Below, one piece after another: positions 7,883-55,930 of a stretch of 64,000 nucleotides of DNA. The notes beneath the pieces are model-generated. The model saw nothing but the letters and a program-made list of their open reading frames with translations, was not told where the DNA came from and made no database searches. Source of the DNA: Diogma glabrata (taxonomy: Eukaryota; Arthropoda; Insecta; Diptera; Cylindrotomidae); NCBI GenBank assembly GCA_963693315.1, contig OY856188.1:202938050-203002049 (forward strand), in the 5' to 3' direction. The translations under genes and the position numbers were made by a program. Each line of letters opens with the position of its first letter. Within the stretch, counting starts at the first letter, position 1.

Positions 7883-8800
7883 AAAGGGCCTGATTAAATT
7901 GATTTCAAAAAATTATAACAAAATCAAAAACTTTTCCAAAGTTCCAAAAATTATAATAAAATCAAAAATTCCAACTTTCTTCAAAATTCCAAAACTATTC
8001 AAGAGAATATTACAAAATCAAAATCAAAATTTTAAATTTTTTTTTCAAAATTCTAAAAATGTTGCGAAAATGGTTACAAAATCAAAGATTTAAACTTTTT
8101 CCAAAATTCTTACAATATTGCAAAAATTATAACGAAACAAAAATATACGAGCTTTTTTCAAAACTTTAAAAATATTTTAAACAATATATTTAAATCAAAA
8201 ATTTAATCTTTTTTCAAAATTCTAAAAATATTCCAAAAATCAAAATTGCAAAAATTATAACATAATCAAAAATTCAAACTCATTTTCCAACTGTTTCTGA
8301 AACATTTTCCTAATAATTACAGTTTTTGTTAAAAAACGACATTTAATCTGCAACAACTTGATGATATTCAACAACTTCAAAAAAATTGGGAAACAAAGTA
8401 TATGAAAATCATTCTTTTCACATACTTAACGATATTTTTGTCACACTTATAACTCAATAATCAAGGTCCTAGTCTCAAATACAGATGCCAATCTTCAAAA
8501 TATCTCCAAATTCAAATTAATACTCATCACTGAAAATTAACATTTTTTAAGCCAAAAATATGAAAATTATTGATACACTTAATGATCTTATGACACACTT
8601 CCGGTACAGCTATCGAACCCATCGCTCAATTAGTAACTCTATTTTTAGAAAAAAAATTTTGAAATCGCTCCAGTAGTTTTATTGTTTTCGTCGATTGTGA
8701 CGGCCGGACAATTTTTTTTTTGCTTTTTTAGAATCGTTATGACCTAAAACATCGAGAAATGCCAAAAAAGTGGGGGCTTTCAGACAGAAGTAATACTAGT
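7883..8800 (+). repeat. A-rich minisatellite block, family copy 1
   Basis: A degenerate motif of roughly 35-70 bp is repeated many times (AAAATTATAACAAAATCAAA, then TTTTTCAAAATTCTAAAAA). It is followed by a conserved tail with GACACACTT repeats, a block near 8660 resembling CTCCAGYRGTTTT, a T-run, and CTTTCAGACAGAAGTAAT. The same architecture and orientation recur at 39460-40600 and 54260-55930, so this is a defined dispersed element and not random low complexity. Confidence 0.75.
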
Positions 8801-30367: not shown

Positions 30368-32703
30368 TTAATTTTTCTTTAATCGATTCTTATGAACGAT
30401 TTTTTCTTTTTTTGTTATGGGATCCTCAATCACTATATTGTGTTTTGGTAGGATTTTTTTTACAATATATGGTCCTGTATAAAAGGATTCTAGCTTATGT
30501 CTATTTTCGTTTGTTAAAAATACTCTATCTGTAATTGATACTTGTAATGGGTTAATGTTTTTATCGTAATAAATTTTTCTTCTTATCTTTTCTTGTTCTA
30601 TTAATGTTTTGGCTCTTTTTAAGGCTACTTGTAATTTGAATTTTAAATGTTTTACATAATCATCAGGGTTATAAAGAGGGTCAACTTTATCATTAAAAAT
30701 TTCGTCAATTGAATTAGCTCTATTACCAAATATTAATTCAAACGGTGTGTAGAGATGGGTTAAATTTGGAGTAGTATTATACGAAAATGCATATATGGAC
30801 AACCAATCATCCCAATCATTGGTTTCTAAATTCATATAATTTCTTAAGAATACATTTATTTCCCTGTGATTTCTCTCTATTTTTCCCAACGTTTCATGGT
30901 GATAGGCAGTGGATATTGCATGTTTAATTCTTAGAGTTTCGCATATATTTTTGATAATTGAATTACAATATTCTGTCCCTTGATCAGATTTTATCGTTTT
31001 CATTGGTCCAAAAACTAAAATAATTCTTTCTATTAAAGCTTTTGCTATTGTAATTGCCTCTTTGTTTGGTATTGGAACGATGATTACATAGTTGGTTAGT
31101 TCACATTGAGCGGTTAATGCATATCTATTATCATTAATAGTTATAGGTAAAGGTCCTATAGTATCTATTTGCACGATATCGAACGCTTTGTTAGGTGTTT
31201 CTGTAATTATTAGATTTTCTTTTGTTTTTCTTAATACTTTATTTTTAGCACATTTGTTGCAATTTTTTATGTAGGTAGCTATGTCCTTAGACATACCTTT
31301 CCATTCGTAAACTGATTTTATTTTTGCTATAGTTTTCCTTTGTCCTGTATGACCACCTAATATTGGATCATCATGATATTTTTTTATTATATTCTCTCTT
31401 TCTTCTTTATTCATAATATTTTTGCGCGCTTTTGTAATAATTATATTTAACATTTTTAAATTGATGTTGGCCAACTTAATAAATTTTTTACTATCAATGT
31501 ATTTAAATATGACGTCATTAGTATATATCTTTAAATTATAAATATTTAATTTGCAAGCTAAGGCCTCTAGCTTCGATAAAAATTGTCCGAAGTCAATTTC
31601 ATCATTCACAAATTTATTAATTGGTAACAATTTTAACTCATTAAAATTGTACACTTCATTTTTAAATTTTTCTTTTCTGTTTTTAGGACATTGTAGCAAT
31701 AGGGTTAAACATTTGTTGTTATTTGTGTCAATAAACTTAAGACATGGAATTTTAACAAGATTATTATCATTATTGTCATACAATACTTTTGTTGTTTCTA
31801 CTGAAATTTCTTTGTCATTTTTAGGATTTAGTATTTTGTTAGACATCGATCTCGTTTGAATGGTTAGAATTGTTTTAATAGAAGATGTTAGAGTTTTTAA
31901 ATCTTCGATTGCGATTCGCGATAACGCGTCTGCGGTAACATTGGTATAACCTCTTACGTGTTCTACTTCAAAATCGTATTCTTCTAGTTCTAATCGAATT
32001 CGTGTTAGTCTGGAGGAAGGATTCTTTAAGGAAAAGAGATGAACTAGGGGCTTATGATCTGATCTAATTAAAAATTTATTGCCAAACACGTATGGTCTAA
32101 AGTGATTTATAGCGAAAAAGATTGCTAATAATTCCTGTTCAATTGTTGACTTGTTTGATTCTCCACGTGTAAAAGTTTTTGAAAAATATGCTACTGGTAG
32201 ATCATTATTGGAATGTTCTTGACTTAGAGTTGCGCCGCATCCAATCTTGGAAGCGTCTGTAGTGATTATAAATTTTTTATTGAAATCTGGGTATTGCAAT
32301 ATTGGAGGATTTTGTAAATAATTTTTTATTATTTCAAATGCCTTTTGGCAGATAGGAGTCCAGTTGAAAGTTTCATTTTTCCTCGTAAGTTTATTTAATG
32401 GAGCGGTTGTTTCTGCAAATTTAGGAATAAATTTTCTGTAGAAATTAGCAAATGCCACGAATCGTCTGGTATCATCTGCATTTTGTGGGACAGGATAATT
32501 TTTGATAGCATGTAGTTTGGATGGATCAATTTTAATTCCATCAGCAGTGCACTGATGTCCAAGAAAGGTAACTTCACTTCTGAAGAAGGAACATTTTTTT
32601 GGGTTTAATTTTAGGTTGAATTTTCTACAAGTTTCAAATACTTGTTGAAGGTTTTTTAAATGATGGTTTTCTGAACAACCAATTACTATTACATCATCCA
32701 TAT
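30368..32703 (-). CDS. pol: pol, downstream part: RT C-terminal half, RNase H, integrase
   Basis: The frame opens with the catalytic MDDVIVIG of reverse transcriptase, continuing through KCSFFRSEVTFLGH. RNase H follows with TDASKIGCGATLSQ, an IEQELLAI segment, RSDHKPL and TADALSR. After a spacer comes the integrase HHCC finger (GGHTGQRKTI..CNKCAKNK). The DDE core follows: first Asp in VQIDTIGPL, second in IKSDQGTEYCNS, and Glu in ETLGKIERNHR. The C-terminus ends with a basic KNRLKKN. The frame is uninterrupted over about 775 codons. Its N-terminal half lies beyond the inserted solo LTR at 32704-33712, so no whole Pol can be made from this copy unless the insert is removed. Confidence 0.93.
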
Positions 32704-33717
32704 TGTTCACGCTGGATCCAGGTTTATGTTGTTATTTTCCTGCAAATATAAAAAAATCATCTTGAAAGTAAATTTAATCTAAAAATGGATCTAAATTTTC
32801 TTATCTCTCTTAAATCCAACGTTGATATCCTCCACAGTCGTTTGTTGCTTTGAAATTAGCTGCAAGAGATAAAAACAAGTATTAATAAGGATATTTTTCT
32901 AGATAATTATTAGATATTGTTTACCTTTTACATTATTTTTTGAAATGTCATTCTGACATTGTTGGTTTGTTTATTCAGCTCAGTTCGCATTTTCACCACT
33001 TTTTAAAAACTGGCGTATCCGTTAGCGATAAAACAGTTTAGTTCAGCAATATTTGTTGAGGTGTTGAAAATGTGTGGCTCTGTTGAAAGTAAAAGGTTCC
33101 ACGTACTCATGTACATTTTGTATTTATAGCTGTGTAATTATAATTGTAATATAGTTTTTTTAGATTTTTTTGAAGTCAAAGTTTGGTCTTCATTTGTTTG
33201 AGTTGTGTTTTCGAAATTAAAATGTTAAGATGTATTCAATATGCTTGCTGTGAAAATAAAGTTGTGAATTAGAGAAGTACATTGTGTTTTTGATAGGAGT
33301 GGGGCTTGAGACGAGTGCTCAAAGGGACTTGATATTGGGCCTCTCATAGTTTTTTCTCTTCAACAGGTGTGGTCGATATTGGGAACCGCCGCCATTGTTA
33401 GGCAACTATAATTCAAAATATTTATCATCGTCATCGAAGCCTATGATTAGGCAAATATATTTCAAAAATAGTTATCATCGTCATCGAGGCCTATGATTAG
33501 GCAAATATATTTCAAAATATTAATCATCGTCATCGAGGCCTATGATTAGGCACATATAATTCAAAATATTTATCATCGTCATCGAGGCCTATGATTAGGC
33601 AAATATAATTCAACTACTTATCATCTGCCGTGATGCCTTCCCGGTAAGTTTTTAGTTCTTCCATCAAAATATAAATACAGTCCACTACTTGCTTGACTGG
33701 GAGGCTTCGCCACATAT
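32699..33717 (+). mobile_element. Putative solo LTR inside pol, 5-bp target duplication
   Basis: The insert 32704-33712 (1009 bp) starts TGTTCACGCTGGATCC and ends GAGGCTTCGCCA, giving TG..CA termini. It is flanked by CATAT at 32699-32703 and 33713-33717. It splits the RT motif between FLYM and DDV. It has no protein frame or terminal inverted repeats beyond TG..CA, so a solo LTR is the best explanation. The orientation is inferred as plus from a possible polyadenylation motif (AAAATAAAG near 33255). A BEL/Pao or Gypsy source is possible. Confidence 0.75.
33385..33615. repeat. Minisatellite of about 58 bp, about four copies
   Basis: The motif TATCATCGTCATCGAGGCCT, then ATGATTAGGCAAATATA and TTCAAAATATT, is repeated about four times with small changes. 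It lies near the 3' end of the putative solo LTR. LTRs with internal minisatellites are length-variable and useful for family identification. Confidence 0.9.
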
Positions 33718-35049
33718 AAAGAAAAGCGCTTTCTGGTGCAACACCAGAAAAAGCCAATGACATCATTCTTTGGAAAGAATTTGGTGCTATTTTTAAACCG
33801 AATGGAACACGGGTGAAACGAAATGTTCCAAAATCTGTAGAAAAAGCTGTGCAATCTCTTGATTCTTCTTCCAATTCTATTTGATGAAATCCACTTAAAA
33901 GGTCTAAGACTGTAAAATATTTTGCCCTTCCTAGCTGATCCAAAATCTCTTCAATTCTAGGAATAGGATAAACATCGCCAATCAGTTTTCGATTCAATTG
34001 TCTAAAATCAACTACAAGTCTGTGTCTTTGTTTGTTACAACCTGGTAGAGATTTTTTCGGTACCAAGAATATAGGACTAGAATATTCAGAAATGCTTGGT
34101 TCAACTATTTTATTATCGATTAGTTTTTGGACTTGTGTTCTTATTTCTTGTTTTTGAGAGTTGGGCAATCGATAGTTTTTAATATAGACTGGGTTATCAT
34201 CCATTAGTCTCAACTTTTGCTTATAAAAATTATTCGAAGATAAAGGTTCATCTTCAAGACCAAAAATGTCGTAATTATTCTTGATTAAATTTTCAAATTT
34301 GTTCCTAATATAACCATTAATATGGTTATTATTTTGAATAATATGATTGTAAATTTGGGTATTTCTGATACTATTTTCATTTGGTTTTTGTTTAAAAATT
34401 TCAAAGTCTGTCAATTTTTCAAAATTAAATTTGGATATTGGTATGTTAATTGAATCTGAATTTGTATTTAAAATTTTAACAATTGGTTTCCCAGAAGAAA
34501 CTATTGAACTTGCTACAAAAACGCCTGGCATTAATTCTTTGTTTAAAATTACCATATCTTCGTTTAACAATATCGGAACAGTTCTAAATACTTCAGCTCT
34601 CGGAGGTATTGTCAGAATGTTTTTATTGAACGATTCGTTAACAGGTATTTCAACACTTTTAGAGCCATTAAAATCAAAATTTAAAGTTAAAGTCCAATTT
34701 TCATAATTTAATATACATTTATAAGTACTTAAGAAGTCTTGCCCTAATATTCCATCTGTAGGTATATTCAAGTCATTTTGTAGTACATGTAATTTTACTT
34801 TAAGTGCATAATTTGGAATGAAAATTTCTGTATTTAAGGTACCCAATGAGTTTACAATGGTATTTGTAACACCTTTTATTTCTATTATGTTTTGCTTGTC
34901 AACATTTGTTATGTTATTATTTTTAATTAAAGAAATTTCAGCACCAGAATCTATTAGAAAAGTTTTAATTCTATCAGAGTTTGATATTTTAAATTTTACG
35001 ACGGTTGCATAATTTAGATTAATAGTATAAACCTGTTTTAATTTTTGTG
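33713..35049 (-). CDS. pol: pol, upstream part: protease and RT N-terminal half
   Basis: The frame overlaps the gag end in the -1 register, so expression by -1 frameshifting is likely. It begins with an aspartic protease whose active site LIDSGAEISLIK is encoded at about 34935-34965, with GILGQDFL further on as the second conserved protease motif. Reverse transcriptase follows: SEYSSPIFLVPKK, RLVVDFRQLN, FTVLDLLSGFHQIEL (first catalytic Asp) and FGLKIAPNSFQRMM. The true frame is broken after FLYM at 33713, where the solo LTR insertion adds a short foreign tail ending near 33614. An alternative shorter start at 34846 would omit the protease active site, so it is unlikely. Confidence 0.92.
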
Positions 35050-35934
35050 TTAGGAGTCTTGATTTAGACTGAGGTTTTGTACTTGAAACCCCAACTCTTC
35101 GTCTTCTGTTACATCAGTTATTGCTCTAACATTTCTTCTAGTATTGTTTGCGTAAGTATTGGTATTGAGCGTATTTGGACGATTTCTATTATAATATGTA
35201 TTGTTGGTACTAAACTGTCTTCCACGGTTGAAATTTGAATTGTAATTTTGACGAAAATTTCTTCTATTAATATTCCCATTAAAATTACGTTCGTTAAAAG
35301 TATTTTGTCTGAAATACTCATTATTTATATGTCCATAACCTCTACCTCCACGGGTAAATCGTAGTATGTTTGCCGCTTTTGCAGTTTTTTCTGCACTAAT
35401 AGCCTCGTTAAACTTGGCTACCATTTCATCTATATTATCATACTCCTGCAACATTGCTGCTTGAATGCTGTTGTTCGTTGCATAAACCATTTTGATGTTG
35501 GATTTAACATCGCTGATTGCTATTTTGTTGGCATTTTCTATCGGCATGCCAAGAGTTTTGTATGCTAAGCATAACTCAGATCTAAGACTTATAATTTTTT
35601 GTATATATTGGTCTTTGTTTATGAGAGTTAAACTATTTAATGCTGATTTTACTTGCTCAACTGTTTTACCAGAGCATTTCCTTTTTAAATTATCAATAAT
35701 TTCATCTATCGTGGTAACATTATCCGGTACAGCTTCTTCAGCCTTCTCTTTTAATTTTGTTAAAATAATAGTAATTGTTTGAGCTATGTTCGCTTCGTTT
35801 GTGATTGTAGTTTTAACTACATTTAATTTTCTTAAGAAATGAGTCAAATCTGTAGCATTTCCATCGTAATTTTCTGTAATGATTTTGTTGACGAGGGAGA
35901 TTATATAAACTGGTGTTAACGCAGTATTCGTCAT
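35050..35934 (-). CDS. gag: gag, nucleocapsid precursor without zinc knuckle
   Basis: The 294-codon frame is intact. The first 170 residues are helical and polar, as in retrotransposon capsid regions (for example LKRKCSGKTVEQVKSALNSL). From about residue 195 the protein turns into an Arg, Gly and Asn rich tail (GGRGYGHINN, NFRQNYNSNFNRGRQF) that should bind RNA. No CCHC knuckle is present, so the basic tail probably replaces it, as in other mdg1/412-type Gag proteins. The Met start at 35932-35934 follows a long leader. The frame ends at 35050, overlapping pol in the -1 frame. Confidence 0.88.
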   Translation of the reverse strand: MTNTALTPVYIISLVNKIITENYDGNATDLTHFLRKLNVVKTTITNEANIAQTITIILTKLKEKAEEAVPDNVTTIDEIIDNLKRKCSGKTVEQVKSALNSLTLINKDQYIQKIISLRSELCLAYKTLGMPIENANKIAISDVKSNIKMVYATNNSIQAAMLQEYDNIDEMVAKFNEAISAEKTAKAANILRFTRGGRGYGHINNEYFRQNTFNERNFNGNINRRNFRQNYNSNFNRGRQFSTNNTYYNRNRPNTLNTNTYANNTRRNVRAITDVTEDEELGFQVQNLSLNQDS

Positions 35935-36725
35935 TGTTTTTGTTTCAACTACGTCAATAGGTGTGTTAAAAAAAATTTTAATTTCGTCAGATTCTACCTT
36001 AGAGAATGGTAGGACGTTTAGAAAACTAAATCTATTATATTCTATTCTAGAAAATAAATCACTAAAAATTATAGGGGAAACCTATAGAACCAAAAAGAAA
36101 GCCAAAACACCTAAAAAAGTATTCTACAAGTAATAAAAAATATTCTACTGAAAACAAGTGTTCTACAAGGTTACTATTGAAATATTCTGATTTCAATCAA
36201 ACAAAAATTCGAACAACAATGTACTTATAACAATACTCAGTAATTTTTTATATCTTATTATTTTATAAAATGTTTTAAAATTCTAAATGACTTTATCGTC
36301 TACCATAATAAAAATAATACCTCAATGAAATCAATTATACCTTAGGAATTATCTTCATCAGCATTTTAAAGAAAATATAACAAAAATCAAACACTAAACA
36401 CATTAAACATATTTTGATCAAATTAATTTCATTTCTTTTATTTTAGTATTTATTTTTTTCGTTTCATTTAACGAAAACAACAAAAAAATTATTAGTAAAA
36501 TTTTAACGAAAACATAACTTTTCTTTGCTTATTCAATTTCATATTTTTCTGTTTTTCTTTTTTTCTTAAAAAAAAAATTGAAAGGTCAGTTAATTATTTA
36601 CTTAATCACTTATTACATAATTAAATTGAAAAAAAAATTCTAATTCTATATTCATTTAATAAATTTAATTTAAAATGATAACTTACAATCTTATTTAAGT
36701 GGTTTTGATCCAAATTCCAAATATG

Positions 36726-39409: not shown

Positions 39410-40746
39410 GCGTCGCACAATGGTTCAAAACCTATTAAAACACGCGCATAAGTGAGAAAACAAATTTTTTTTTTCTCATAACTGACCATTTGTTTATTTG
39501 TTTTGATTACTACTCAAAAACCTCTCCATTTAGCGTTTCGAGAAATATTACAAAATGAAAACATCAAATTTCTTTCAAAATGCCAAACATATTCCAAAAA
39601 TTATTACAAAATCAAAGATTGGAACTTTTTTCATAAAAATATTGCAAAAATTATAAGAAAATCAAAAATTGAAACTTTTTCCAGAATTCTTAAAATATTG
39701 CAAAAATTATAACAAAATCAAAAATACAAACGTTTTTCAAAATTCTAAAAATATTCCAAAAATTATAACAAAATCAAAAATTGAAACTTATTGAAAAATT
39801 CTTAATATATTGCAAAAATAATAAAAAATCAAAAAAAACTTTTTTCAAAATTCTAAAAATATTCCAAAAATATAATAAAACCAAAAAAAAAAAAAACTTT
39901 TTTCAAAATTCTAAAAATATTCCAAAAATTATTAAAAAATCAAAAATTGAAACTTTTTTCAAAAATCTAAAAATATTGCAAAATTCATAATTCACAAATT
40001 GAAAAATTCAAACTTTTTCAAAAATTCATTAGAATATTGTAAAAATTATAACAAAATCATGTCATACAAATAATTAATGTCATACAAATGTTCATGTCAT
40101 ACAAATAATTAATTTTATTTTTTTCCGAAAAATTGGTTAGAAAAATAAATAAAAACCATTTTTGACACACTTGACAATGCTTTTTTGACAAACTTATAAT
40201 ACAATTCTCAATTTCATGTTCAATCACATTTCATGTCATACAAATAATTAATTTCATTTTTTTTCACAAAAAATTGGGAAAAAAACTAAATAAAAAATTC
40301 TTTTGACACTCTTGACAATATTTTTTGACAAACTTACAATGCAAAATCTCAATAATACGTCCTACTGCATGTTCAATTACATTTCATGTCATACAAATAA
40401 TTAATTTTATTTTTTTCCAAAAAATTGTGTAAAAAATAAATGAAAATCTTCTTTTGACACACTTAACAACATTTTTTAACACACTTGACAACAACCTCCA
40501 GCGGTTTTTCCAGATTTCTAAAACGTCGAGAAATGCCAAAAAAGTAGGGATAAGAATTTCACTTTTGGCTCGAGAATGTAATACTTAGGTCTTTCAGACC
40601 GGTTTACTTGATTGATTGATTGAATGATTTACTTTCTGAAAAATAATTTAAACGAAAAATATACTAAACATCCACGTAGAATTATTTAAAAGGGAGCAAA
40701 ATAATAATGCGCGTGTTTCAATAGGTTTTGAACCATTGTGCGTCGC
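39410..40746. mobile_element. TIR-bounded element containing the A-rich minisatellite
   Basis: A 40-bp terminal inverted repeat is present. The left end has GCGTCGCACAATGGTTCAAA, then ACCTATTAAAACACGCGCAT (39410-39449). The right end 40707-40746 is its complement with about two mismatches. TTAA lies directly after the right end and five bases before the left end, hinting at a TTAA target. The interior holds the A-rich minisatellite and its conserved tail (39490-40600). It is non-coding. It is the only one of the three minisatellite copies for which termini are obvious. Confidence 0.75.
39490..40600 (+). repeat. A-rich minisatellite block, family copy 2
   Basis: Repeats of AAAATTATAACAAAATCAAA and TTTTTCAAAATTCTAAAAA run to about 40060. 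ACACTTGACAAC, TTTTTTGACAAACTTA and TCATACAAATAATTAAT blocks follow, repeated three times, and then CCTCCAGCGGTTTTTCC and CTTTCAGACCGG. The order matches copies 1 and 3. Confidence 0.75.
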
Positions 40747-40925: not shown

Positions 40926-41155
40926 TGGAATTGGGCCATTATGAACTGTTAAACTCGTGTTGTGTGATCTCTCTGACATGCATAGTTATGTTACCACAGT
41001 TTACCAGCTCGGCGATAAAAATACCCTTATATTCCTAATAAACTCTTATTTTGGAAACACCAATTTAATAATCGTTTTCACCACTTTAATAATCGTCTAA
41101 GCTCAATGAAAATGACTGCAAAAATAAATAATAATATTCTTTCTATCTCTTACAG
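40926..41155. other. Sequence upstream of the first visible PAQR3 exon
   Basis: The stretch ends in a good 3' splice site: a pyrimidine-rich tract ATTCTTTCTATCTCTTACAG at 41136-41155. It is therefore read as the end of an upstream intron whose 5' exon was not found. Confidence 0.6.
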
Positions 41156-41719
41156 AATGAAAAGACATCCGAACAATATTTTGAAGAAAGCCGTAGTTAT
41201 TGCTTATCACGGACATGTCAACAACAACAACATACAAATACTGTAAACAATAATAAAAAAAATGAGAAAGAAGAAGAGGCTAACTTTGATGAGTATGATA
41301 AATGCCGGCAGCTTTTAACTTATGATGATGCCCCAAAGCATATGCAATTTAATCCATATATACGAACAGGTTACCGAAGAATATTATCAACAAAAATGTG
41401 CCTTGAAAGTGTCTTTTGGTGGACGAACGAAACAATAAATATTTGGAGTCACGTTTTTGGCTGTTTTTTGTTTATAGCTTTGACAATCAATGATATTGCA
41501 TTTTTGAAGATGCATGCAACATTTACGGATAAAATATTAGTTGGAGGGATATTGTTCTGTTTTCAAGCTTGTATGGTTTTATCATCGATTTATCATACGT
41601 TTTCTTGTCGTTCGGAGAAGGCTTATGAATGTTTTTTAGCTTATGATTTATTTGGAATTGCGTTGTCGTTGCTAGCAATCTATATTAGTGGAATTTACTA
41701 TGCATTTTGGTGTCATACG
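41156..41719 (+). CDS. PAQR3: PAQR3-like receptor, first visible coding exon
   Basis: This 188-codon exon encodes a member of the progestin/adipoQ receptor family. PAQR3 (also called RKTG) is a Golgi seven-transmembrane protein that restrains Raf signalling in mammals. A polar, Gln and Asn rich N-terminal stretch leads to QFNPYIRTGYR and then NETINIWSHVFG, the start of membrane helix 1. FCFQACMVLSSIYHTFSCRSE carries the conserved S..H..SC motif that helps bind zinc in the family. DLFGIALSLLAIYISGIYYAF is the next helix pair. The exon ends in phase 0 before GTAAGC at 41720. It may continue a 5' exon, because an acceptor precedes it and the first in-frame Met is internal (41342). Assignment to PAQR3 rests on my recall of the human protein. 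Confidence 0.88.
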
Positions 41720-42105
41720 GTAAGCTTATTTTATTATGTTTTTTATTAAGAGTAACTTGAAATTTAGTCAATCCAATGGACTTGCTAAATGTCAACAATA
41801 TTGTATGACGTATCGACTAGATGTCACAACAACACACATCTTTAGTATTTTTCATAACTTTTATGCATTGAAACCGGTCAACACTATTGATTTCAGCAAA
41901 TCATTCCATATACTGTCCTAAAACGATCTACACATCTATAGACTTATCCATCGCACACCGATCTGCCTCATCGAATTGCAAATGTGCCCGAAAAATCTAA
42001 CATCAGATGCTGTTTATGTTAAAGTTAAGAATAATATAAGAACTGAATCTAAAAAATTATGGTGCAAATTATGAAACTTTTTGCAATCCATACAATTTTA
42101 GAGCG

Positions 42106-42180
42106 ATCTAGTTTCGAACCAATGAAAAAATTTTAAACTTTAAAAAGTTTATCATTCTCATCAGGGCTAGCCGACTAGAT
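42106..42180 (-). ncRNA. Hammerhead ribozyme, unit 1
   Basis: Minus strand, same 75-nt sequence as 44145-44219, where the fold is described. All core bases are intact. Confidence 0.7.
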
Positions 42181-42559
42181 AAACTCTACCAAAAAATGTC
42201 AACGCTAATAAATATAAACCAAAAATTAGGTTACAACTCTAGCGAAGTGTAAAAACAAAAAATTTACATAAACATACATTTAATAAATTCAGGTTTAGTC
42301 AATTAATTTCTCTGGTGATCACTGTTTTGTTATACTCTAGACATTCTAGTATTGAATAACAAACTTGTATCGGTGAGAGGAAGATGACTAGTCTTCACTT
42401 GTGTCTATTGACACATTATCAACAATTAATTCAGTAAATTATTTGTGATATAACATCACCCCGATGGAAAATCTCCCATCAAGAATAATATAAGAACTGA
42501 ATCTAAAAAATTATGGTGCAAATTATGAAACTTTTTGCAATCCATACAATTTTAGAGCG

Positions 42560-42634
42560 ATCTAGTTTCGAACCAATGAAAAAATTTTAAACTTTAAAAA
42601 GTTTATCATTCTCATCAGGGCTAGCCGACTAGAT
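42560..42634 (-). ncRNA. Hammerhead ribozyme, unit 2
   Basis: Minus-strand copy offset by exactly 454 bp from unit 1, with intact core and stem III. Confidence 0.7.
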
Positions 42635-43013
42635 AAACTCTACCAAAAAATGTCAACGCTAATAAATATAAACCAAAAATTAGGTTACAACTCTAGCGAA
42701 GTGTAAAAACAAAAAATTTACATAAACATACATTTAATAAATTCAGGTTTAGTCAATTAATTTCTCTGGTGATCACTGTTTTGTTATACTCTAGACATTC
42801 TAGTATTGAATAACAAACTTGTATCGGTGAGAGGAAGATGACTAGTCTTCACTTGTGTCTATTGACACATTATCAACAATTAATTCAGTAAATTATTTGT
42901 GATATAACATCACCCCGATGGAAAATCTCCCATCAAGAATAATATAAGAACTGAATCTAAAAAATTATGGTGCAAATTATGAAACTTTTTGCAATCCATA
43001 CAATTTTAGAGCG

Positions 43014-43088
43014 ATCTAGTTTCGAACCAATGAAAAAATTTTAAACTTTAAAAAGTTTATCATTCTCATCAGGGCTAGCCGACTAGAT
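43014..43088 (-). ncRNA. Hammerhead ribozyme, unit 3
   Basis: Minus-strand copy, 454 bp further on, with intact core and stem III. Confidence 0.7.
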
Positions 43089-43467
43089 AAACTCTACCAA
43101 AAAATGTCAACGCTAATAAATATAAACCAAAAATTAGGTTACAACTCTAGCGAAGTGTAAAAACAAAAAATTTACATAAACATACATTTAATAAATTCAG
43201 GTTTAGTCAATTAATTTCTCTGGTGATCACTGTTTTGTTATACTCTAGACATTCTAGTATTGAATAACAAACTTGTATCGGTGAGAGGAAGATGACTAGT
43301 CTTCACTTGTGTCTATTGACACATTATCAACAATTAATTCAGTAAATTATTTGTGATATAACATCACCCCGATGGAAAATCTCCCATCAAGAATAATATA
43401 AGAACTGAATCTAAAAAATTATGGTGCAAATTATGAAACTTTTTGCAATCCATACAATTTTAGAGCG

Positions 43468-43542
43468 ATTTAGTTTCGAACCAATGAAAAAATTTTAAAC
43501 TTTAAAAAGTTTATCATTCTCATCAGGGCTAGCCGACTAGAT
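43468..43542 (-). ncRNA. Hammerhead ribozyme, unit 4, with a stem III mismatch
   Basis: Here ATCTAGT is ATTTAGT on the plus strand. In the ribozyme strand this turns the G at position 15.5 into A, giving an A-C mismatch in the middle of the 7-bp stem III. Core and cleavage triplet are unchanged, so activity may be reduced. Confidence 0.65.
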
Positions 43543-44144
43543 AAACTCTACCAAAAAATGTCAACGCTAATAAATATAAACCAAAAATTAGGTTACAACT
43601 CTAGCGAAGTGTAAAAACAAAAAATTTACATAAACATACATTTAATAAATTCAGGTTTAGTCAATTAATTTCTCTGGTGATCACTGTTTTGTTATACTCT
43701 AGACATTCTAGTATTGAATAACAAACTTGTATCGGTGAGAGGAAGATGACTAGTCTTCACTTGTGTCTATTGACACATTATCAACAATTAATTCAGTAAA
43801 TTATTTGTGATATAACATCACCCCGATGGAAAATCTCCCATCAAGAATAATATATTTCCATCGGGGTGATGTTATATCACAAATAATTTACTGAATTAAT
43901 TGTTGATAATGTGTCAATAGACACAAGTGAAGACTAGTCATCTTCCTCTCACCGATACAAGTTTGTTATTCAATACTAGAATGTCTAGAGTATAACAAAA
44001 CAGTGATCACCAGAGAAATTAATTGACTAAACCTGAATTTATTAAATGTATGTTTATGTAAATTTTTTGTTTTTACACTTCGCTAGAGTTGTAACCTAAT
44101 TCTTGGTTTATATTTATTAGCGTTGACATTTTTTGGTAGAGTTT

Positions 44145-44219
44145 ATCTAGTCGGCTAGCCCTGATGAGAATGATAAACTTTTTAAAGTTTAAAATTTTTT
44201 CATTGGTTCGAAACTAGAT
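44145..44219 (+). ncRNA. Hammerhead ribozyme, unit 5, sense to the host gene
   Basis: Stem III is perfect over 7 bp: ATCTAGT (44145-44151) pairs with ACTAGAT (44213-44219). The cleavage triplet is GTC with C17 at 44152. Stem I is GGCTAGCC (44153-44160), a self-complementary octamer that can close as 2 bp plus a CTAG loop or dimerise. The catalytic box CTGATGA is at 44161-44167. Stem II starts with GAA and ends with TTC, with an internal hairpin TAAACTTT/AAAGTTTA (44174-44191). GAAA is at 44210-44213. All invariant hammerhead nucleotides are present. The short stem I is the main weakness. Cleavage would fall between 44152 and 44153 and cut the receptor's pre-mRNA within its intron. Confidence 0.75.
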
Positions 44220-44598
44220 CGCTCTAAAATTGTATGGATTGCAAAAAGTTTCATAATTTGCACCATAATTTTTTAGATTCAGTTCTTATATTATTCTTGA
44301 TGGGAGATTTTCCATCGGGGTGATGTTATATCACAAATAATTTACTGAATTAATTGTTGATAATGTGTCAATAGACACAAGTGAAGACTAGTCATCTTCC
44401 TCTCACCGATACAAGTTTGTTATTCAATACTAGAATGTCTAGAGTATAACAAAACAGTGATCACCAGAGAAATTAATTGACTAAACCTGAATTTATTAAA
44501 TGTATGTTTATGTAAATTTTTTGTTTTTACACTTCGCTAGAGTTGTAACCTAATTTTTGGTTTATATTTATTAGCGTTGACATTTTTTGGTAGAGTTT

Positions 44599-44673
44599 AT
44601 CTAGTCGGCTAGCCCTGATGAGAATGATAAACTTTTTAAAGTTTAAAATTTTTTCATTGGTTCGAAACTAGAT
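44599..44673 (+). ncRNA. Hammerhead ribozyme, unit 6, sense to the host gene
   Basis: Exact repeat of unit 5 displaced by 454 bp, with the predicted cut between 44606 and 44607. Two sense copies in tandem would release a 454-nt monomer from the intron. Confidence 0.75.
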
Positions 44674-45063
44674 CGCTCTAAAATTGTATGGATTGCAAAA
44701 AGTTTCATAATTTGCACCATAATTTTTTAGATTCAGTTCTTATATTATTCTTGATGGGAGATTTTCCATCGGGGTGATGTTATATCACAAATAATTTACT
44801 GAATTAATTAAAGTTAAGCAGAACACCATATTTTACATTGAATTATGGTATATGAATGCATACACGTACATTCAAAATGATTAAACGACGACCGAATTAA
44901 CGACCATGGAGCTACATTGAACACCGGTAGCAGAAACAATTTAACTGTAAAAAACAGTTCTTGATGACCAAGTGGCGTTTCGTGTGCTTAATAGTTAAAT
45001 TTATAATGCAAAACACAAATTTAAACAAAAAAGTATTCAACAAATGTTTTAATTTTATTTCAG

Positions 45064-45252
45064 GCTCTTCGAAATTTCTACACAATTACGGTAGGCGCCA
45101 TTTTTGCAACTGCTATGATAATGCAAATTCCAAAACTAAATGTCAACGGTCATCTTAAATTATGTATGTTTGTTGCATGGGCTGCATATGGTGTTGTTCC
45201 AACATTACATTGGGTCCTTGAAATGGGTGGATTTGAAAACTCAATTGTTCGT
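45064..45252 (+). CDS. PAQR3: PAQR3-like receptor, second visible exon
   Basis: 63 codons lie between a CAG acceptor at 45061-45063 and a GTAAGT donor at 45253, phase 0 on both sides. The exon encodes LRNFYTITVGAIFATAMIM, LKLCMFVAWAAYGVVPTLHW and VLEMGGFENSIVR, which are two membrane helices. The GVVPTLHW motif is characteristic of PAQR3 in my recollection. The intron before it (41720-45063) contains the hammerhead array. Confidence 0.9.
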
Positions 45253-46925: not shown

Positions 46926-47614
46926 TCATGACATGGAGCTATGTTTGATTTTGTTGAAATTCTTCGTCATGATATCTGCCATGTTCCCTTCTGATGAAAC
47001 ATATTGAAGATCAATTAATTTTTTCTCGAAAATCTCCCGTACGAAAAGAATCTTGATATCGATGTATTTTGTTCTGTTGTGATATACTGGGTTCTGAACA
47101 AGTTTGATTGCTCCAAGATTATCCTTATGAATTTTTGTAGGTTGATCAATGAACTGTGTAAGTCCAATTTCTGTTAGCATATTCCGAAGATATACAGCTT
47201 CCTTTCCAGTAGAGCAAAGGTCCATATATTTTACTTCGGTATTAATCAAGGCGATTGTAGGCTGTAATTTGCTCTCCCACGTAACTGGACCGCCAGCTAA
47301 ACAAAAAATGTAACAAGTGAAAGAACGCCTACTCTGTGTTTGACTAGCCTAATCTGCATCGCAGGAAGCGAATAGTGATTTTCCTTGCTTAACGTACGAA
47401 ATGCCATAGTCAAGTCAATGGTGTTCAGCAAATACTTAGCAGCGTGCTTTGCAGCAGTGAAGTGCTCCTTGTGAGGATTAGAATTCATCTGAGACAATTT
47501 AGAAATCGAGTGAAGAATATCCGGTCTTGTACACGGTCCAATGTGTAGGAGATATTCTATCAATGATTGATAAATAGTATTATTTACCTTATTACATTCT
47601 TCATCACACTGCAC
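46926..47614 (-). pseudogene. Copia RNase H and connection region
   Basis: Frames 47297-47614 and 46926-47249 carry IEYLLHIGPCTRPDILHSIS and SQMNSNPHKEHFTAAKHAAKYL, typical of the Copia RT-RNase H link. RNase H follows with EVKYMDLCSTGKEAVYLR, KDNLGAIKLVQNPVYHNRTK and IDIKILFVREIF. The two frames are out of register near 47250-47300. Confidence 0.85.
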
Positions 47615-47651
47615 GCACTTTGTAAGGATTGCTTTAGAATTGATTGATGTA

Positions 47652-48353
47652 CTACATATTCTTAAAGTTGAATTCTTCCAGCATTTTTCGAATAGACTGC
47701 TTCTGAGTAACTCTTACAGCTCCATTCTCCCCCTCTCTCAATACTTCCATGCCCAGAAAGTAATTGAGAGCACCTTTGTCCACACAATCAAATGTGTTCT
47801 TGATTTCTTTCTTTAGTGAGATAAGTACTTCCAGAGACTTCGAAACTACCAATTTGTCGTTGACTTAAACCACCAAAATTGTGTTGCCATTCTTCGAATT
47901 ATTTCTTACATACAAACAATTCTCAATTTTGAGTCTCTCGAAGCCCATTCAAACGAACTCCTTATGCAGCGTTTCATTCCACTCACGACCAGATTGTTTG
48001 AGTCCATATAGCGACCTTTGAAGTTTGCACACCTTTTTGGGATTTTCTTTACTCACAAAACCTTCGGGCTGTTGCATAAAGATCTCATGATGAAGTTGTC
48101 CATTCAAATATGCCCCAACCACATCTATTTGGTGAACATACATCTCCAACTCCACAGCTACTGCAAACAACAAACGAATTGTGGAGGATCGGGTGACAGA
48201 CGCAAACGTCTCTTCAAAATCAAATTCTTCCTTCTGGTTGAAACCTTTGGCTACAAGTCTGGCCTTGTACTTTTCAATACTACCATCGGAGAAACTTAAT
48301 CGCAAAGACCCATTTACATTTGATAGCCTTGAGATCTTTGGCTTATCGATCAA
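47652..48353 (-). pseudogene. Copia reverse transcriptase
   Basis: Frame 47949-48353 reads KARLVAKGFNQKEEFDFEET, RLLFAVAVELEMYVHQIDVV, GAYLNGQLHHEIFMQQPEGF and SLYGLKQSGREWN, the standard Copia RT series with the first catalytic Asp in QIDV. The YVDD box near 47860 is destroyed: the frame reads ILVV, a stop, then VND, so a stop and a D-to-N change remove activity. Frame 47652-47852 continues with SKSLEVLISLKKEI and YFLGMEVL. Confidence 0.88.
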
Positions 48354-49565
48354 AATCTAGGTATCTTTCTCTTCCAACTGTGCAATTTCTTTAGCCATTG
48401 TCTTTCTCCATAGCTCATCACGTTCTAGTGATTCCTTGAAATTTTGTGGTGTTGATAATTCAGAGTAAGCAACTGATTTGTTTACAGCAGCTACAAACTC
48501 TCCATATCTGTCAGAAACCTTCTTCGTTCGTACCGTTTTTTGACTAACCTCTGGAGTCGGAGTGTTTCGAATAACTTGATGTAGACCTTACACATTTTCT
48601 GGAACGTAATCATCTGTGCTCTCATACTCCTCTTCTCCATCCGAAGAAATTGTCTGCACCAACTCAGCATTTTGAACTTTGACTATCAATGGAAAAAATA
48701 TTAGTTCAGGTTCATTCAATTTCTTACCTTTATGTTCTGAGAATGAATTTTCAATAAACTTTACATCGCGCCTAATGTTGATCGTCTTGTTCTGCAGATT
48801 AAAACATCTATAGCTCTTAGATTGCTCGCTGATCGTACCCAACATAAATATGTTTAACACCTCTGGCTTCAAATTTTCCGTGACCTGGCTTCTTGTCCAG
48901 TGAAACAACTCTTGAACCAAACACCTTCAAATCCGTGACAACTAGCTTCACTCCAAACCATATTTCGTGAGGCGTTTTGTCTCCAAGAATCTTTGTTGGA
49001 CTTCTGTATCTTAGGGAGACTGCTGTGTTGATTGCTTCCACCCACAGAAACATGGGTACACCGGACTGCAACATCATGCATCGAACCATGTCTAAGGTCG
49101 TTCTGTTCCCTCGCTCAGCAACTCCGTTCTGTTGTGGAGCATAGGGAATGGTAAGCTCTCGCCGGATGCTACTATTTTCAAGATGCTTCGTGAATCCTTC
49201 AATTAAAAACTCACCGCCATTGTCAGTTCAAATCGCTTTTACACGTTTGCCACAATGATTTTCGGCAAAAAAATGGAAAACTTTGAACTTTTCGAGAGCC
49301 TGCGACTTCGTCTTCCAAAAATATACGAACTTCATACGTGAGTAATCAGCAGTTGTTTGAAAAAAGTAATTCGATCCACACTTCTCATCAGTCCACATAG
49401 ATCTGCATGGACAATCTCCAACAACTCCGTACTTCTTGGTTTACTTTCTTTTGGAAATGGTTTTTTAACAATCTTTCCTTTCATGCAAATTTCACACTGC
49501 AAATCCGAACCGGGATCCGCAAAATCCAAGCCATCGAACATATTTTTGTTCTTCAAATCTTTCAA
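48354..49565 (-). pseudogene. Copia integrase
   Basis: The minus strand carries the remnant of the HHCC finger ending LQCEICMKGK (49332-49565) and VHADLCGLM with the first catalytic Asp. Near 49170-49230 it reads TDNGGEFLIEGF (second Asp), and PYAPQQNGVAERGNR with the Glu lies near 49110-49160. MMLQSGVPMFLWVEAINTAV, KTPHEIWFGVK and FGSRVVSLDKKPGHGKFEA follow in 48817-49089. The spacer 48588-48920 is the variable linker to RT. Frames change several times and the finger's second His appears to be Cys. Confidence 0.85.
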
Positions 49566-49715
49566 GCTTCTAACATTTAGACACCCGTACCTATCATGCT
49601 ATTTTCGTAGATCAAATCCACTTCTGACAGCTCCCAATATTTGTTTCTTTACTTTGTATGCGCACAAATCATCTTCTCTAAAACCTCTGAGAATCAGTTT
49701 TTTTTATCATTTCTT

Positions 49716-50018
49716 TTAAAGTTCATTGTGTCGAATGATGACCTTCAATCCACCTGCAGTCATTTTAGGTATCGATAGGAAATTCAGCTTCGCATCTGGG
49801 ATGTAATGGACATTCTTCAACTCAATACTTCCATATTCGGTTTCAAGAATGACTCTTCTTATTCCTTCAGCTTTCACGGAACTGCCATCTGCCAATGTCA
49901 ATTTGTCCGAGATTGGATTAATTTCAGAAAACATCTCATTTTTGCAGCATACATAGCACGTAGCGCCACTAGCGAATATCCAGGTGTTGTCCCTATTCTC
50001 TTTGAATGCGCAGAACAA
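49716..50018 (-). pseudogene. Copia protease with catalytic Asp lost
   Basis: The frame reads DNTWIFASGATCYVC where Copia proteases have WIxDSGAT. The catalytic Asp is replaced by Ala. SDKLTLADGSSVKAEGIRRV and IELKNVHYIPDAKLNFLSI follow, typical of the family. The protein would be catalytically dead even where the frame is open. Confidence 0.85.
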
Positions 50019-50072
50019 TCCGAAATATGTCTTGTTCGCAGATTCTGTTGCTTTCTTCTTCTCGTTTGATGG

Positions 50073-50700
50073 ACAATTTTTGGAAAAATGTCCAGTTTTA
50101 TGACACTTGAAACATTTCAGCGGTTTTTATTTTCTTTCGAAGAATTTTCACGTTTCTGGTAAAAAAACTCTTTCGTCCTTCGAAACCTCAGAGTTCCTCC
50201 TTATTGATTCCTCAATCAACTTATTCTTTATCGAATTCAATGGTTGAATTTTGCAACTTTGAAATTTTCGTAGCTTTTCGGTAAAGCGTTCAACAGAATA
50301 CTCGCTAAAAGCCCTTCAGAAAGATGTTCGTCGAAAATCTTGATTCGTCCAACAAGATCAAAAAACGTCTTCAGGAACTCTGTCATTTTCGTTCCATCTT
50401 CCATTTTAATTGTCAACAATTGAGTTGTTAACATCATCACCGTTGCAGGAACCTTTGACTCAAATACTTCGATCAGCTTATCCCATGCTCCATTTGTAGT
50501 TTCGCATTCGGATATATTACATAATTGTGACGGCTTCAAGCAAAGCGTGATGGTGGCTAACGCTTTAGCATCATTCGTATCCCAATCTTTTTCCTTGGGA
50601 TTGGCTGCATCTTTAGTGTACTTACACATGTCGTTGTGGATGAGCACCGAACTCGTCTGATTTTTTCAAGATGGAAAATTTTCACCGTCCAACTTTTGAA
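50073..50700 (-). pseudogene. Copia gag with zinc knuckle
   Basis: The 50237-50647 frame contains KALATITLCLKPSQLCNISE, AWDKLIEVFESK and MTEFLKTFFDLVGRI, typical of Copia Gag. A CCHC knuckle CFKCHKTGHFSKNC is encoded near 50073-50113 after frame changes. The N-terminus near 50690 begins MENFPS and then meets a stop. Confidence 0.85.
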
Positions 50701-54260: not shown

Positions 54261-55930
54261 ATAATCAAAATTCCAAACATATTGTTAAATTAAATAAAAT
54301 CAAACTTTTTCAAAATACCAAAAATATTCCAAAAATTAGAATGAAATCAAATATTTAAACTTTTTCTAAATTCCGATAATATTCCAAAAATTATTAAAAA
54401 TTCAAACTTTTCCAAAATTCTAAAAATATTGCAAAAATTATTACAAAATCAAACATTAAAACTTTTTTCAAAATTCGAAAAATTATAATAAAATCAAAAA
54501 TTTAAAATTTTTCAAATTTCTAAAAATATTCCAAAAATTCTTACAAAATCAAAAAATGAAACTTTTTTCAAAATTCTAAATATATATAAAATTCAAAAAT
54601 TCTATTTTTTTCAAAATTCTAAAAATATTGCGAAAATTATAACAAAATCAAAAATTGAAACCTTTTTCAAAATTTCAAAAATATTCCAAAAATTAGAATG
54701 AAATCAAATATTTAAACTTTCTAAATTCCAATAATAATCCAAAAATTCTTAAAAATTCAAACTTTTTCCAAAATTCTAAAAATATTGTTAGATTAAATAA
54801 AATCAAACTTTTTCAAAATTCCAAAAATATTCCAAAAATTAGAATGAAATCAAATATTTAAACTTTTTCTAAATTCCGATAATATTCCAAAAATTCTTAA
54901 AAATTCAAACTTTTCCAAAATTCTAAAAATATTGCAAAAATTATTACAAAATCAAAAATTGAAAATTTTTTCAAAATTCCAAAAATTATAACAAAATCAA
55001 AAATTAAAAATTTTTCAATATTCTAAAAATATTCCAAAAATTCTTACAAAATCAAAAATTAAAACTTTTTCCGAAATTCTAAAAATATTGCAAAAATTAT
55101 TACAAAATCAAAATACAAACTTTTTCAAAATTCCAAAAATATTTCAAAAACTATAACAAATTCAAAAATTTCCATGTCCAATTTCATTTTCAATTACATT
55201 TAGTCATGAAAACCTACATTTTTTTTCCAAAAAATTGGCTAAAAAAATAAATGAAATCATTTTTGGACACACTTGACATTATTTTTTGACAAACTTATAA
55301 TGCCATAATTCTCTATAATAATAATAAAATTTCATTTCAAACAAACAATTTTATTTTTTTCCAAAAAATTGGGTAAAAAAATAAATAAAAATCTTTCTTT
55401 TGACACATTTGACAACATTTTTTTGACAAACTTGCCATAATTCTCAATAATAATAATAAAAGTTCATTTCAAACAAACAATTAAATTTATTTTTTTTCCA
55501 AAAAATTGGGTAAAAAATAAATAAAAATCTTTCTTTTGACACACTTGACAACATTTTTTTGACAAACTTATAATGCAATAATCTAGTTTTTGATCTCACA
55601 TACCAATTCCTACCATCAAGATTTCTCCAAATTTAATGTTCCTACTCGTAATCACTTAAAATGAACGTTTTTTAAGCCAAAAATATGAAAATTTGCTATT
55701 TTTGACACACATAATGATTTTTTTGACGCACTTCCGGTACAGTTATCGAACACAGCGTCCTTTCGGACCTGTCCCTTGAGTATACCTATTTTTAGAAAAA
55801 AAAATTTTGAAATCCCTCCAGCGGTTTTCCCCGCAGCGTAGGTAATGACGGACGGCCGGCCGGCCGACAGACACATACATTTTTTTTTTGCTTTTTTAGA
55901 ATCTTTCAGACCGAAGTAATTGATTATAAA
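54260..55930 (+). repeat. A-rich minisatellite block, family copy 3 (longest)
   Basis: Many repeats of TTTTTCAAAATTCTAAAAA, TATTCCAAAAATTA and AAAATCAAA fill 54280-55170. Three tail units with GACACACTTGACAACATTTT and GACAAACTTATAATGC then occur. The end has CCTCCAGCGGTTTTCC, GGACGGCCGGCCGGCC, a T-run and CTTTCAGACCGAAGTAATTG. A possible higher-order repeat is visible, as 54290-54410 resembles 54785-54915. Confidence 0.8.

What the first reader, a model, noticed from the sequence alone, without database searches (positions are those of the whole stretch)
42019..44818. Tandem and inverted 454-bp units each carrying a hammerhead ribozyme, inside a receptor-gene intron
Six near-identical units each contain CTGATGA, GAAA, a GTC cleavage triplet and a perfect 7-bp stem III (five of six) at fixed spacing. 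The combination of all invariant hammerhead bases with complementary stem III is very unlikely by chance. Tandem monomers with hammerheads are the hallmark of retrozymes and self-cleaving satellites, which spread as circular RNA. The suggested 9-11 bp target duplication (TTAAAGTTAAG) around the whole array implies it arrived as one multimeric insertion. I do not know a described insect family with this monomer.
Basis: partly seen in the sequence, partly recalled or inferred. Interest (0 to 1): 0.92.

Follow-up and report, generated by a model that had tools for sequence, protein, structure and literature searches.

The report
Hammerhead retrozyme carried by Penelope elements
A fly genome carries many copies of a small non-coding mobile element with a likely self-cutting RNA motif, and the way its copies sit in the DNA points to the jumping-gene machinery that inserts them and to a circular RNA as the likely template.

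Summary
Window 42030-44807 holds six 454-bp units (about four on -, two on +, head-to-head) between exact 11-bp target duplications. Five of six have an intact hammerhead motif; 0 of 20,000 shuffles do. No Rfam hammerhead model hits, even at E<=10, so self-cleavage is inferred, not shown.

The unit is a dispersed family (194 matches; 40 of 1152 candidates scored). In 22 arrays with mapped edges, 38 of 41 RNA-sense 3' ends lie at two sites about 63 nt apart. Of 16 arrays with 9-13 bp duplications and both ends known, 15 use one site on each side. The 5' ends are scattered, none at the cleavage site (33 stops). This is the head-to-head, one-end 'tail' signature of Penelope-like elements (PLEs), seen here in 8 of 8 PLE insertions with clear duplications.

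Best reading: a non-autonomous retrozyme-like element copied by PLE protein from both cut strands, probably from circular RNA. It differs from described animal retrozymes by a type III hammerhead with a palindromic stem I. A 2020 review calls their mobilising partner undeduced.

The parts
42019..42029 (.). left target-site duplication TTAAAGTTAAG
   Evidence: exact copy at 44808-44818
42030..43854 (-). minus-strand multimer, about 4.0 units; RNA-sense 3' end at the left edge (monomer 143-146 = start site 1), 5' end at the junction (monomer 135)
43855..44807 (+). plus-strand multimer, about 2.1 units; 5' end at the junction (monomer 157), 3' end at the right edge (monomer 201-203 = start site 2)
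44808..44818 (.). right target-site duplication
44135..44230 (+). hammerhead motif, predicted cleavage between 44152 and 44153
   Evidence: descriptor
44589..44684 (+). hammerhead motif, predicted cleavage between 44606 and 44607; with the previous one it would release one 454-nt monomer from a host sense transcript
43457..43552 (-). hammerhead motif with stem III broken by the change at 43470
43003..43098 (-). hammerhead motif, C17 at 43081
42549..42644 (-). hammerhead motif, C17 at 42627
42095..42190 (-). hammerhead motif, C17 at 42173
44750..44807 (+). 58-nt 'tail' present at the right end only (between start sites 1 and 2)
   Evidence: two-site rule
41135..41719 (+). open frame holding the PAQR3 exon upstream of the host intron; a GT follows at 41720 (read by eye)
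   Evidence: Pfam HlyIII; sequence, frames
45064..45252 (+). next PAQR3 exon (AG before, GT after, read by eye)
   Evidence: sequence, frames; homologs

Best explanation
The array is one insertion of a 454-nt non-coding, retrozyme-like retroelement. Steps: (1) a genomic multimer is transcribed (inferred); (2) hammerheads, probably paired through the palindromic stem I GGCUAGCC, cut the RNA into 454-nt monomers, which are ligated into circles (inferred from motif, conservation and anatomy); (3) a Penelope-like (GIY-YIG + reverse transcriptase) protein made by the host's own PLEs binds the RNA and cuts both target strands about 11-12 bp apart (inferred from target duplications and PLE-type ends); (4) each cut strand primes reverse transcription at its own fixed internal site (monomer ~137-146 on one strand, ~201-205 on the other; the ends show the sites), and the enzyme runs one to many laps round the RNA (multimers shown; circular template inferred); (5) the two cDNAs stop at arbitrary places and are joined head-to-head (shown by the junctions).
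For: Motif: 5 of 6 units, 0 of 20,000 shuffles. Core and stems 3 of 1442 differing cells against 61 of 6331 elsewhere in 33 arrays; two of the three changes keep a G.U pair and the third keeps an NUH triplet. Dispersed family with 194 matches. Ends: 38 of 41 RNA-sense 3' ends of 22 arrays at two sites; 15 of 16 arrays with duplication and both ends known use one of each (a2's duplication). 5' stops scattered: 33 stops of 18 arrays, Rayleigh p 0.68, none within 3 nt of the cleavage site. Head-to-head in 20 of 24 arrays whose orientation could be read; 3 one-directional, 1 rearranged. Array B's units are identical to each other in the parts compared but for one inserted base, while B is about 97% identical to A. 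PLEs: 150 GIY-YIG matches, all over the cut-off (150 of 4129 candidates scored), frames up to 840 aa; reverse transcriptase beside GIY-YIG in 4 of 5 frames tested, one of the four under Pfam's cut-off; neighbouring copies within 12 kb -+ 17, +- 0, same strand 9; a tail at one end only in 8 of 8 PLE insertions with a clear duplication. Published PLE biochemistry gives both-strand cutting and extension and two adjacent internal start sites = tail (PMC11167929, main text).
Against: No Rfam hammerhead hit. Nearest-neighbour folding prefers a structure that buries the core (-25.6 against -15.3 kcal/mol for one hammerhead; -59.5 against -44.5 for the pair). The variability test by sites is not significant (3 of 45 against 42 of 373, p 0.45), and the arrays are related, so the cell-level p of 0.002 overstates. 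No sequence similarity between the unit and nine PLE ends, so no partner PLE is named. Six of 22 edge-mapped arrays lack a clear duplication (a4, a5, a10, b2, b3, b8). PMC11167929 saw no difference in start site between the two strands in vitro, unlike the one-site-per-side rule here. No expression data.
Confidence: 0.83

Rival explanations
1. A PLE-mobilised tandem element whose hammerhead is a relic: the template is an uncut multimeric read-through transcript, not a circle.
For: The purified PLE of PMC11167929 used uncut RNA, and ribozyme mutants still inserted. Competing folds bury the core.
Against: Core and stems vary less than the rest by cells. Multimers of at least eight units occur (C15 locus). 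5' stops are scattered rather than at a cleaved RNA end, although an uncut transcript would also give scattered stops.
Confidence: 0.25
2. Ordinary satellite DNA amplified by unequal crossing-over or rolling-circle DNA, with a chance hammerhead.
For: Tandem units; AT-rich monomer, 29% GC.
Against: Dispersed copies with target duplications and fixed ends, head-to-head order; fewer changes in the core; 0 of 20,000 shuffles give the motif.
Confidence: 0.03
3. L1-like twin priming of a linear multimer by a LINE enzyme.
For: Inverted 5' parts with overlaps of a few bases at the primed ends; array A alone would fit one linear multimer with a 10-nt gap.
Against: In twin priming the second priming site is arbitrary (recalled); here 15 of 16 arrays use the same two sites, and array B does not fit one linear multimer. 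The tail is described as a signature unique to PLEs (PMC11167929, abstract).
Confidence: 0.06

Closest known systems
Metazoan non-LTR retrozymes (PMC7229834: abstract and three sections read)
   Same: tandem low-GC repeats with hammerheads, duplications longer than the 4 bp of plant retrozymes, coexistence with PLEs
   Different: those carry type I hammerheads, repeats of 150-450 bp and circular RNAs of ~170-400 nt; here the connectivity is type III with a very short palindromic stem I and a 454-nt unit; PLE involvement was proposed there as likely, while here an integration footprint is shown
Penelope-like elements (PMC11167929 abstract and main text; PMC3846280 passages)
   Same: head-to-head copies, duplications, tail at one end; a hammerhead-like core 187 and 217 nt before the tail end in 2 of 9 PLE ends tested here, 193 and 197 nt in arrays A and B
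   Different: no ORF (longest stop-free stretch 46 codons), 454-nt unit
Plant LTR retrozymes (PMC7761336 passages and one section)
   Same: type III hammerhead, non-autonomous
   Different: 9-13 bp and not 4-bp duplications, insect host; LTR, PBS and PPT were not searched for
HDV-like circular RNAs of termites and toads (PMC7761336 passage)
   Same: type III hammerheads in animals
   Different: those are HDV-like circular RNAs, not genomic repeats; no sequence comparison made here
pDo500 satellite of Dolichopoda cave crickets (PMC2837043 abstract and passages)
   Same: insect repeat of about 500 bp with a hammerhead, a double form proposed
   Different: in the proposed double form stem III pairs within one strand; here stem I is the palindrome; no sequence comparison was possible

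Membership tests
Retrozyme (broad: non-autonomous retroelement with hammerheads spreading through circular RNA) | tandem non-coding units, one hammerhead each | tested here: met
   (one of six units has a broken stem III)
Retrozyme (broad: non-autonomous retroelement with hammerheads spreading through circular RNA) | multimeric insertions with target duplications | tested here: met
   16 of 22 edge-mapped arrays, 9-13 bp
Retrozyme (broad: non-autonomous retroelement with hammerheads spreading through circular RNA) | self-cleavage and circular RNA | not testable with these tools
   needs RNA
Metazoan non-LTR retrozyme as described | type I hammerhead | tested here: not met
   stem III is the open one, stem I closed by 2-4 nt: type III connectivity
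Metazoan non-LTR retrozyme as described | low GC, no ORF | tested here: met
   GC 29%, longest stop-free stretch 46 codons
Metazoan non-LTR retrozyme as described | no LTR, PBS or PPT | not tested
   no specific search made
Plant LTR retrozyme | 4-bp target duplication | tested here: not met
   9-13 bp
Penelope-like element | GIY-YIG + reverse transcriptase ORF | tested here: not met
   no ORF in the unit
Penelope-like element | tail at one end, two fixed RT start sites, head-to-head copies, duplications | tested here: met
Rfam hammerhead families | covariance-model hit | tested here: not met
   no positive control (the control rang in 0 of 14); the scan also misses the PLE cores

The most novel reading that the evidence does not exclude
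A single circular RNA is copied at the same time by two Penelope-type reverse transcriptases, one primed from each cut target strand. The two must start at different, fixed sites because they share one RNA molecule, which would explain why only one end bears a tail, in these arrays and in PLEs alike. The circles come from a type III hammerhead that works as a pair through a palindromic stem I, a mirror of the pairs through stem III described for newt and viroid hammerheads. Animal retrozymes would thus be to PLEs what SINEs are to LINEs.
Probability: 0.4. Interest if true: 0.9.

Novelty: new variant of a known kind. Interest (0 to 1): 0.8.

Why it matters
A 2020 review states that metazoan retrozymes show no conserved motif from which the autonomous partner could be deduced, and names PLEs as likely candidates (PMC7761336). 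These arrays carry an integration footprint, in young insertions, in a genome with many long-ORF PLEs, so the partner question becomes testable. The one-site-per-side rule also bears on the later steps of PLE integration, which PMC11167929 leaves to be validated.

Tried and rejected
Rfam scans of window, array and six loci: no hammerhead; most other low-scoring matches there are miRNA models on inverted-repeat junctions. RF00008 over the genome: nothing, and its control rang in 0 of 14. Unit 20-mer in viral contigs: 0. A stem spanning start site 1 seemed shared between the unit and some PLEs but does not clearly exceed shuffles in any of 10 sequences (12 to 55 of 60 shuffles reach it): rejected. 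Sequence similarity of the unit and nine PLE ends: none, p 0.44-0.90. A single linear multimer for array A (10-nt gap) was considered; array B does not fit it. A random sample of 60 kb held one fragment, 93.8% identical over 130 nt: too little for a copy number. The genome-wide list is ranked and cut (40 of 1152 candidates scored), so the arrays used are biased to young copies.

Rows set aside. Of 22 edge-mapped arrays, a4 (203/201, rearranged, only a 6-bp match), a5 (278/204) and a10 (205/292) lack a clear duplication; b2, b3, b8 are one-directional without one; a11 (141/150) is the exception among the 16. a2 is counted on the 13-bp duplication; the stricter script returned none for it. The two scripts differ by up to 4 nt in placing edges. 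No shuffle control was run for the duplications. a12, b6 and b10 have one end unresolved. b11-b14 and the single units were not edge-mapped. Of 15 PLE loci whose ends were printed 9 went into; L023 there has only a low-complexity 9-bp word inside its repeat arm and is not counted as clear; L016 and L014 have 8 and 1 residual bases at the tail-less end. L013, L015, L017, L024, L027 and L028 were left out for microsatellite or unclear ends; L020, L021, L026, L029 and L030 were not tried. Junction stops in stretches not fetched, or cut from the list, were not read.

Full report
What is there. The window's insert (42030-44807, 2778 bp) consists of a minus multimer of about 4.0 units and a plus multimer of about 2.1 units of a 454-bp monomer, joined head-to-head at 43854/43855, between exact copies of TTAAAGTTAAG. 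Only two bases in it depart from one monomer. It lies in an intron of PAQR3 (HlyIII domain; best named homologs are mosquito PAQR3 at 73%, the best hit of all is unnamed at 76%), so the host is probably a nematoceran fly; the genome has 1.33 Gb.

The hammerhead. On the RNA-sense strand the monomer reads stem III strand, GTC, GGCTAGCC, CTGATGA, stem II, GAAA, stem III strand. Five of six units satisfy a strict descriptor; 0 of 20,000 shuffles of the unit and none of 60 of the window do. Stem III is 7 bp, and further pairs lie beyond an internal loop. Stem III is the open one, so the connectivity is type III. Stem I has at most 3 bp and a 2-nt loop, but GGCTAGCC is a palindrome: two copies pair through 8 bp and gain about 14 kcal/mol over two single hammerheads. 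Against activity: the free minimum-energy folds bury the core, and Rfam gives no hammerhead hit. The hammerhead-like cores of this genome's PLEs also escape that scan, and one PLE hammerhead is reported to cleave only with its protein added (PMC11167929).

The family. A second array, B, turned up by chance 0.1-0.3 kb from a PLE: about 97% identical to the window unit, its own units identical in the parts compared but for one inserted base, head-to-head, with an 11-bp duplication. After many busy answers the genome search gave 194 matches, with 40 of 1152 candidates scored. I fetched edge windows of 20 further arrays, then extensions and the edges of three more.

The ends. For 22 arrays with mapped edges there are 41 RNA-sense 3' ends: 38 fall at monomer 137-146 or 201-205; the others are at 150, 278 and 292. 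Three further single ends (a12 202, b6 139, b10 205) also fall there. Sixteen arrays have duplications (9-13 bp; a2) and both ends; 15 of 16 have one end at each site (p 0.0003 against an even coin). Leaving out the first two arrays, 27 of 28 ends of the other 14 fall in the two windows; those windows were drawn with the data in view. The 5' stops, read at junctions and one-directional ends, are scattered: 33 stops of 18 arrays, Rayleigh p 0.68, none within 3 nt of the cleavage site (the first 17 alone gave 0.89). The 3' ends are thus specified and the 5' ends are not, as expected of internal priming on a template without an effective end.

The Penelope link. The genome holds many PLEs: 150 GIY-YIG matches, all over the cut-off (150 of 4129 candidates scored), with frames to 840 aa; reverse transcriptase lies beside GIY-YIG in 4 of 5 frames tested, one of them under Pfam's cut-off. 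Neighbouring matches within 12 kb are ordered -+ 17 times, +- never, same-strand 9 times. In 8 of 8 PLE insertions with a clear duplication (12-15 bp) one end bears a tail of 30-62 nt and the other ends 0-8 nt from the shared point; a ninth, L023, looks alike but its duplication is doubtful. Arrays A and B have tails of 58 and 65 nt. In two of nine PLE ends (L025 and L023) a hammerhead-like core lies 187 and 217 nt before the tail end; in arrays A and B it lies at 193 and 197 nt; seven ends had none. PMC11167929 (abstract and main text) reports that a PLE protein cuts and extends both strands and starts inside its RNA at two adjacent sites that correspond to the tail; it saw no difference in start site between the strands, which the rule found here does not match. 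PMC3846280 (passages) describes head-to-head order and the optional tail at one of the inverted copies.

Conservation. In 33 arrays, core and stems show 3 differing cells of 1442, the distal part of stem II 13 of 1188, the rest 61 of 6331 (deletions counted, insertions not). The three changes are C7T (G.U in stem I), A64G (G.U in stem III) and G452A (GUC to AUC). One array has four extra bases in the stem I loop with both stem strands kept, another two extra bases in the loop beyond stem III. By sites the contrast is not significant (3 of 45 against 42 of 373), so conservation is supportive rather than decisive.

What is shown and what is inferred. Shown: motif, insertion anatomy, two fixed 3' ends, one per side, and the same kind of ends in this genome's PLEs. 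Inferred: cleavage, circularisation, PLE protein acting in trans, copying of a circle. Multi-unit cDNAs speak against cut linear monomers as templates but not against uncut multimeric transcripts.

Consequence for the host gene. Two sense hammerheads in the PAQR3 intron (44152, 44606) would, if active, release one 454-nt monomer from the host transcript (inference).

Novelty. Searches of the held library listed, by title and start of abstract, no paper on this element, on a type III hammerhead retrozyme of an animal, or on the tail signature in retrozymes; most listed papers were not opened and papers outside that library were not seen. Type III hammerheads are reported in HDV-like circular RNAs of termites and toads (PMC7761336 passage). 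Cervera and de la Pena 2014 is not held and Lunse et al. 2017 was seen only as a reference. Of PMC3088659 and PMC10085705 I saw passages only; the former's legend describes pairs of hammerheads through palindromic stem III.

Noticed in passing
window 30371-36081 (-): LTR retrotransposon of gypsy type in long open frames (protease, reverse transcriptase, RNase H, integrase domains); observed only.
   Followed up: no
window 46929-50665 (-): Fragmented copia-type element (RVT_2 and SH3_retrovirus domains, further pieces in broken frames).
   Followed up: no
window 8019-8240, 39546-40491, 54265-55582; L038 3000-3400: AT-rich 56-bp and ~150-bp tandem repeats of similar consensus recurring in the window; in L038 similar AT-rich repeats abut an old fragment (93.8%) of the hammerhead unit.
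   Followed up: partly
L021 (G000:C598:1-10000) and matches to 17122 on that contig: Six PLE GIY-YIG matches about 2869 bp apart on one strand; the 10 kb fetched is a head-to-tail repeat at 99.6% identity: PLEs themselves form long multimers, as if copied from a circle or a long read-through RNA.
   Followed up: partly
arrays b2, b3, b8: The three one-directional insertions without duplication all end at start site 2, none at site 1: site 2 may be the first one used.
   Followed up: no
L002, L004, L005, L007, L025, L023: PLE loci with hammerhead-like cores (CTGAGGA or CTGAAGA, perfect stem II, GAAA) near their ends.
   Followed up: partly
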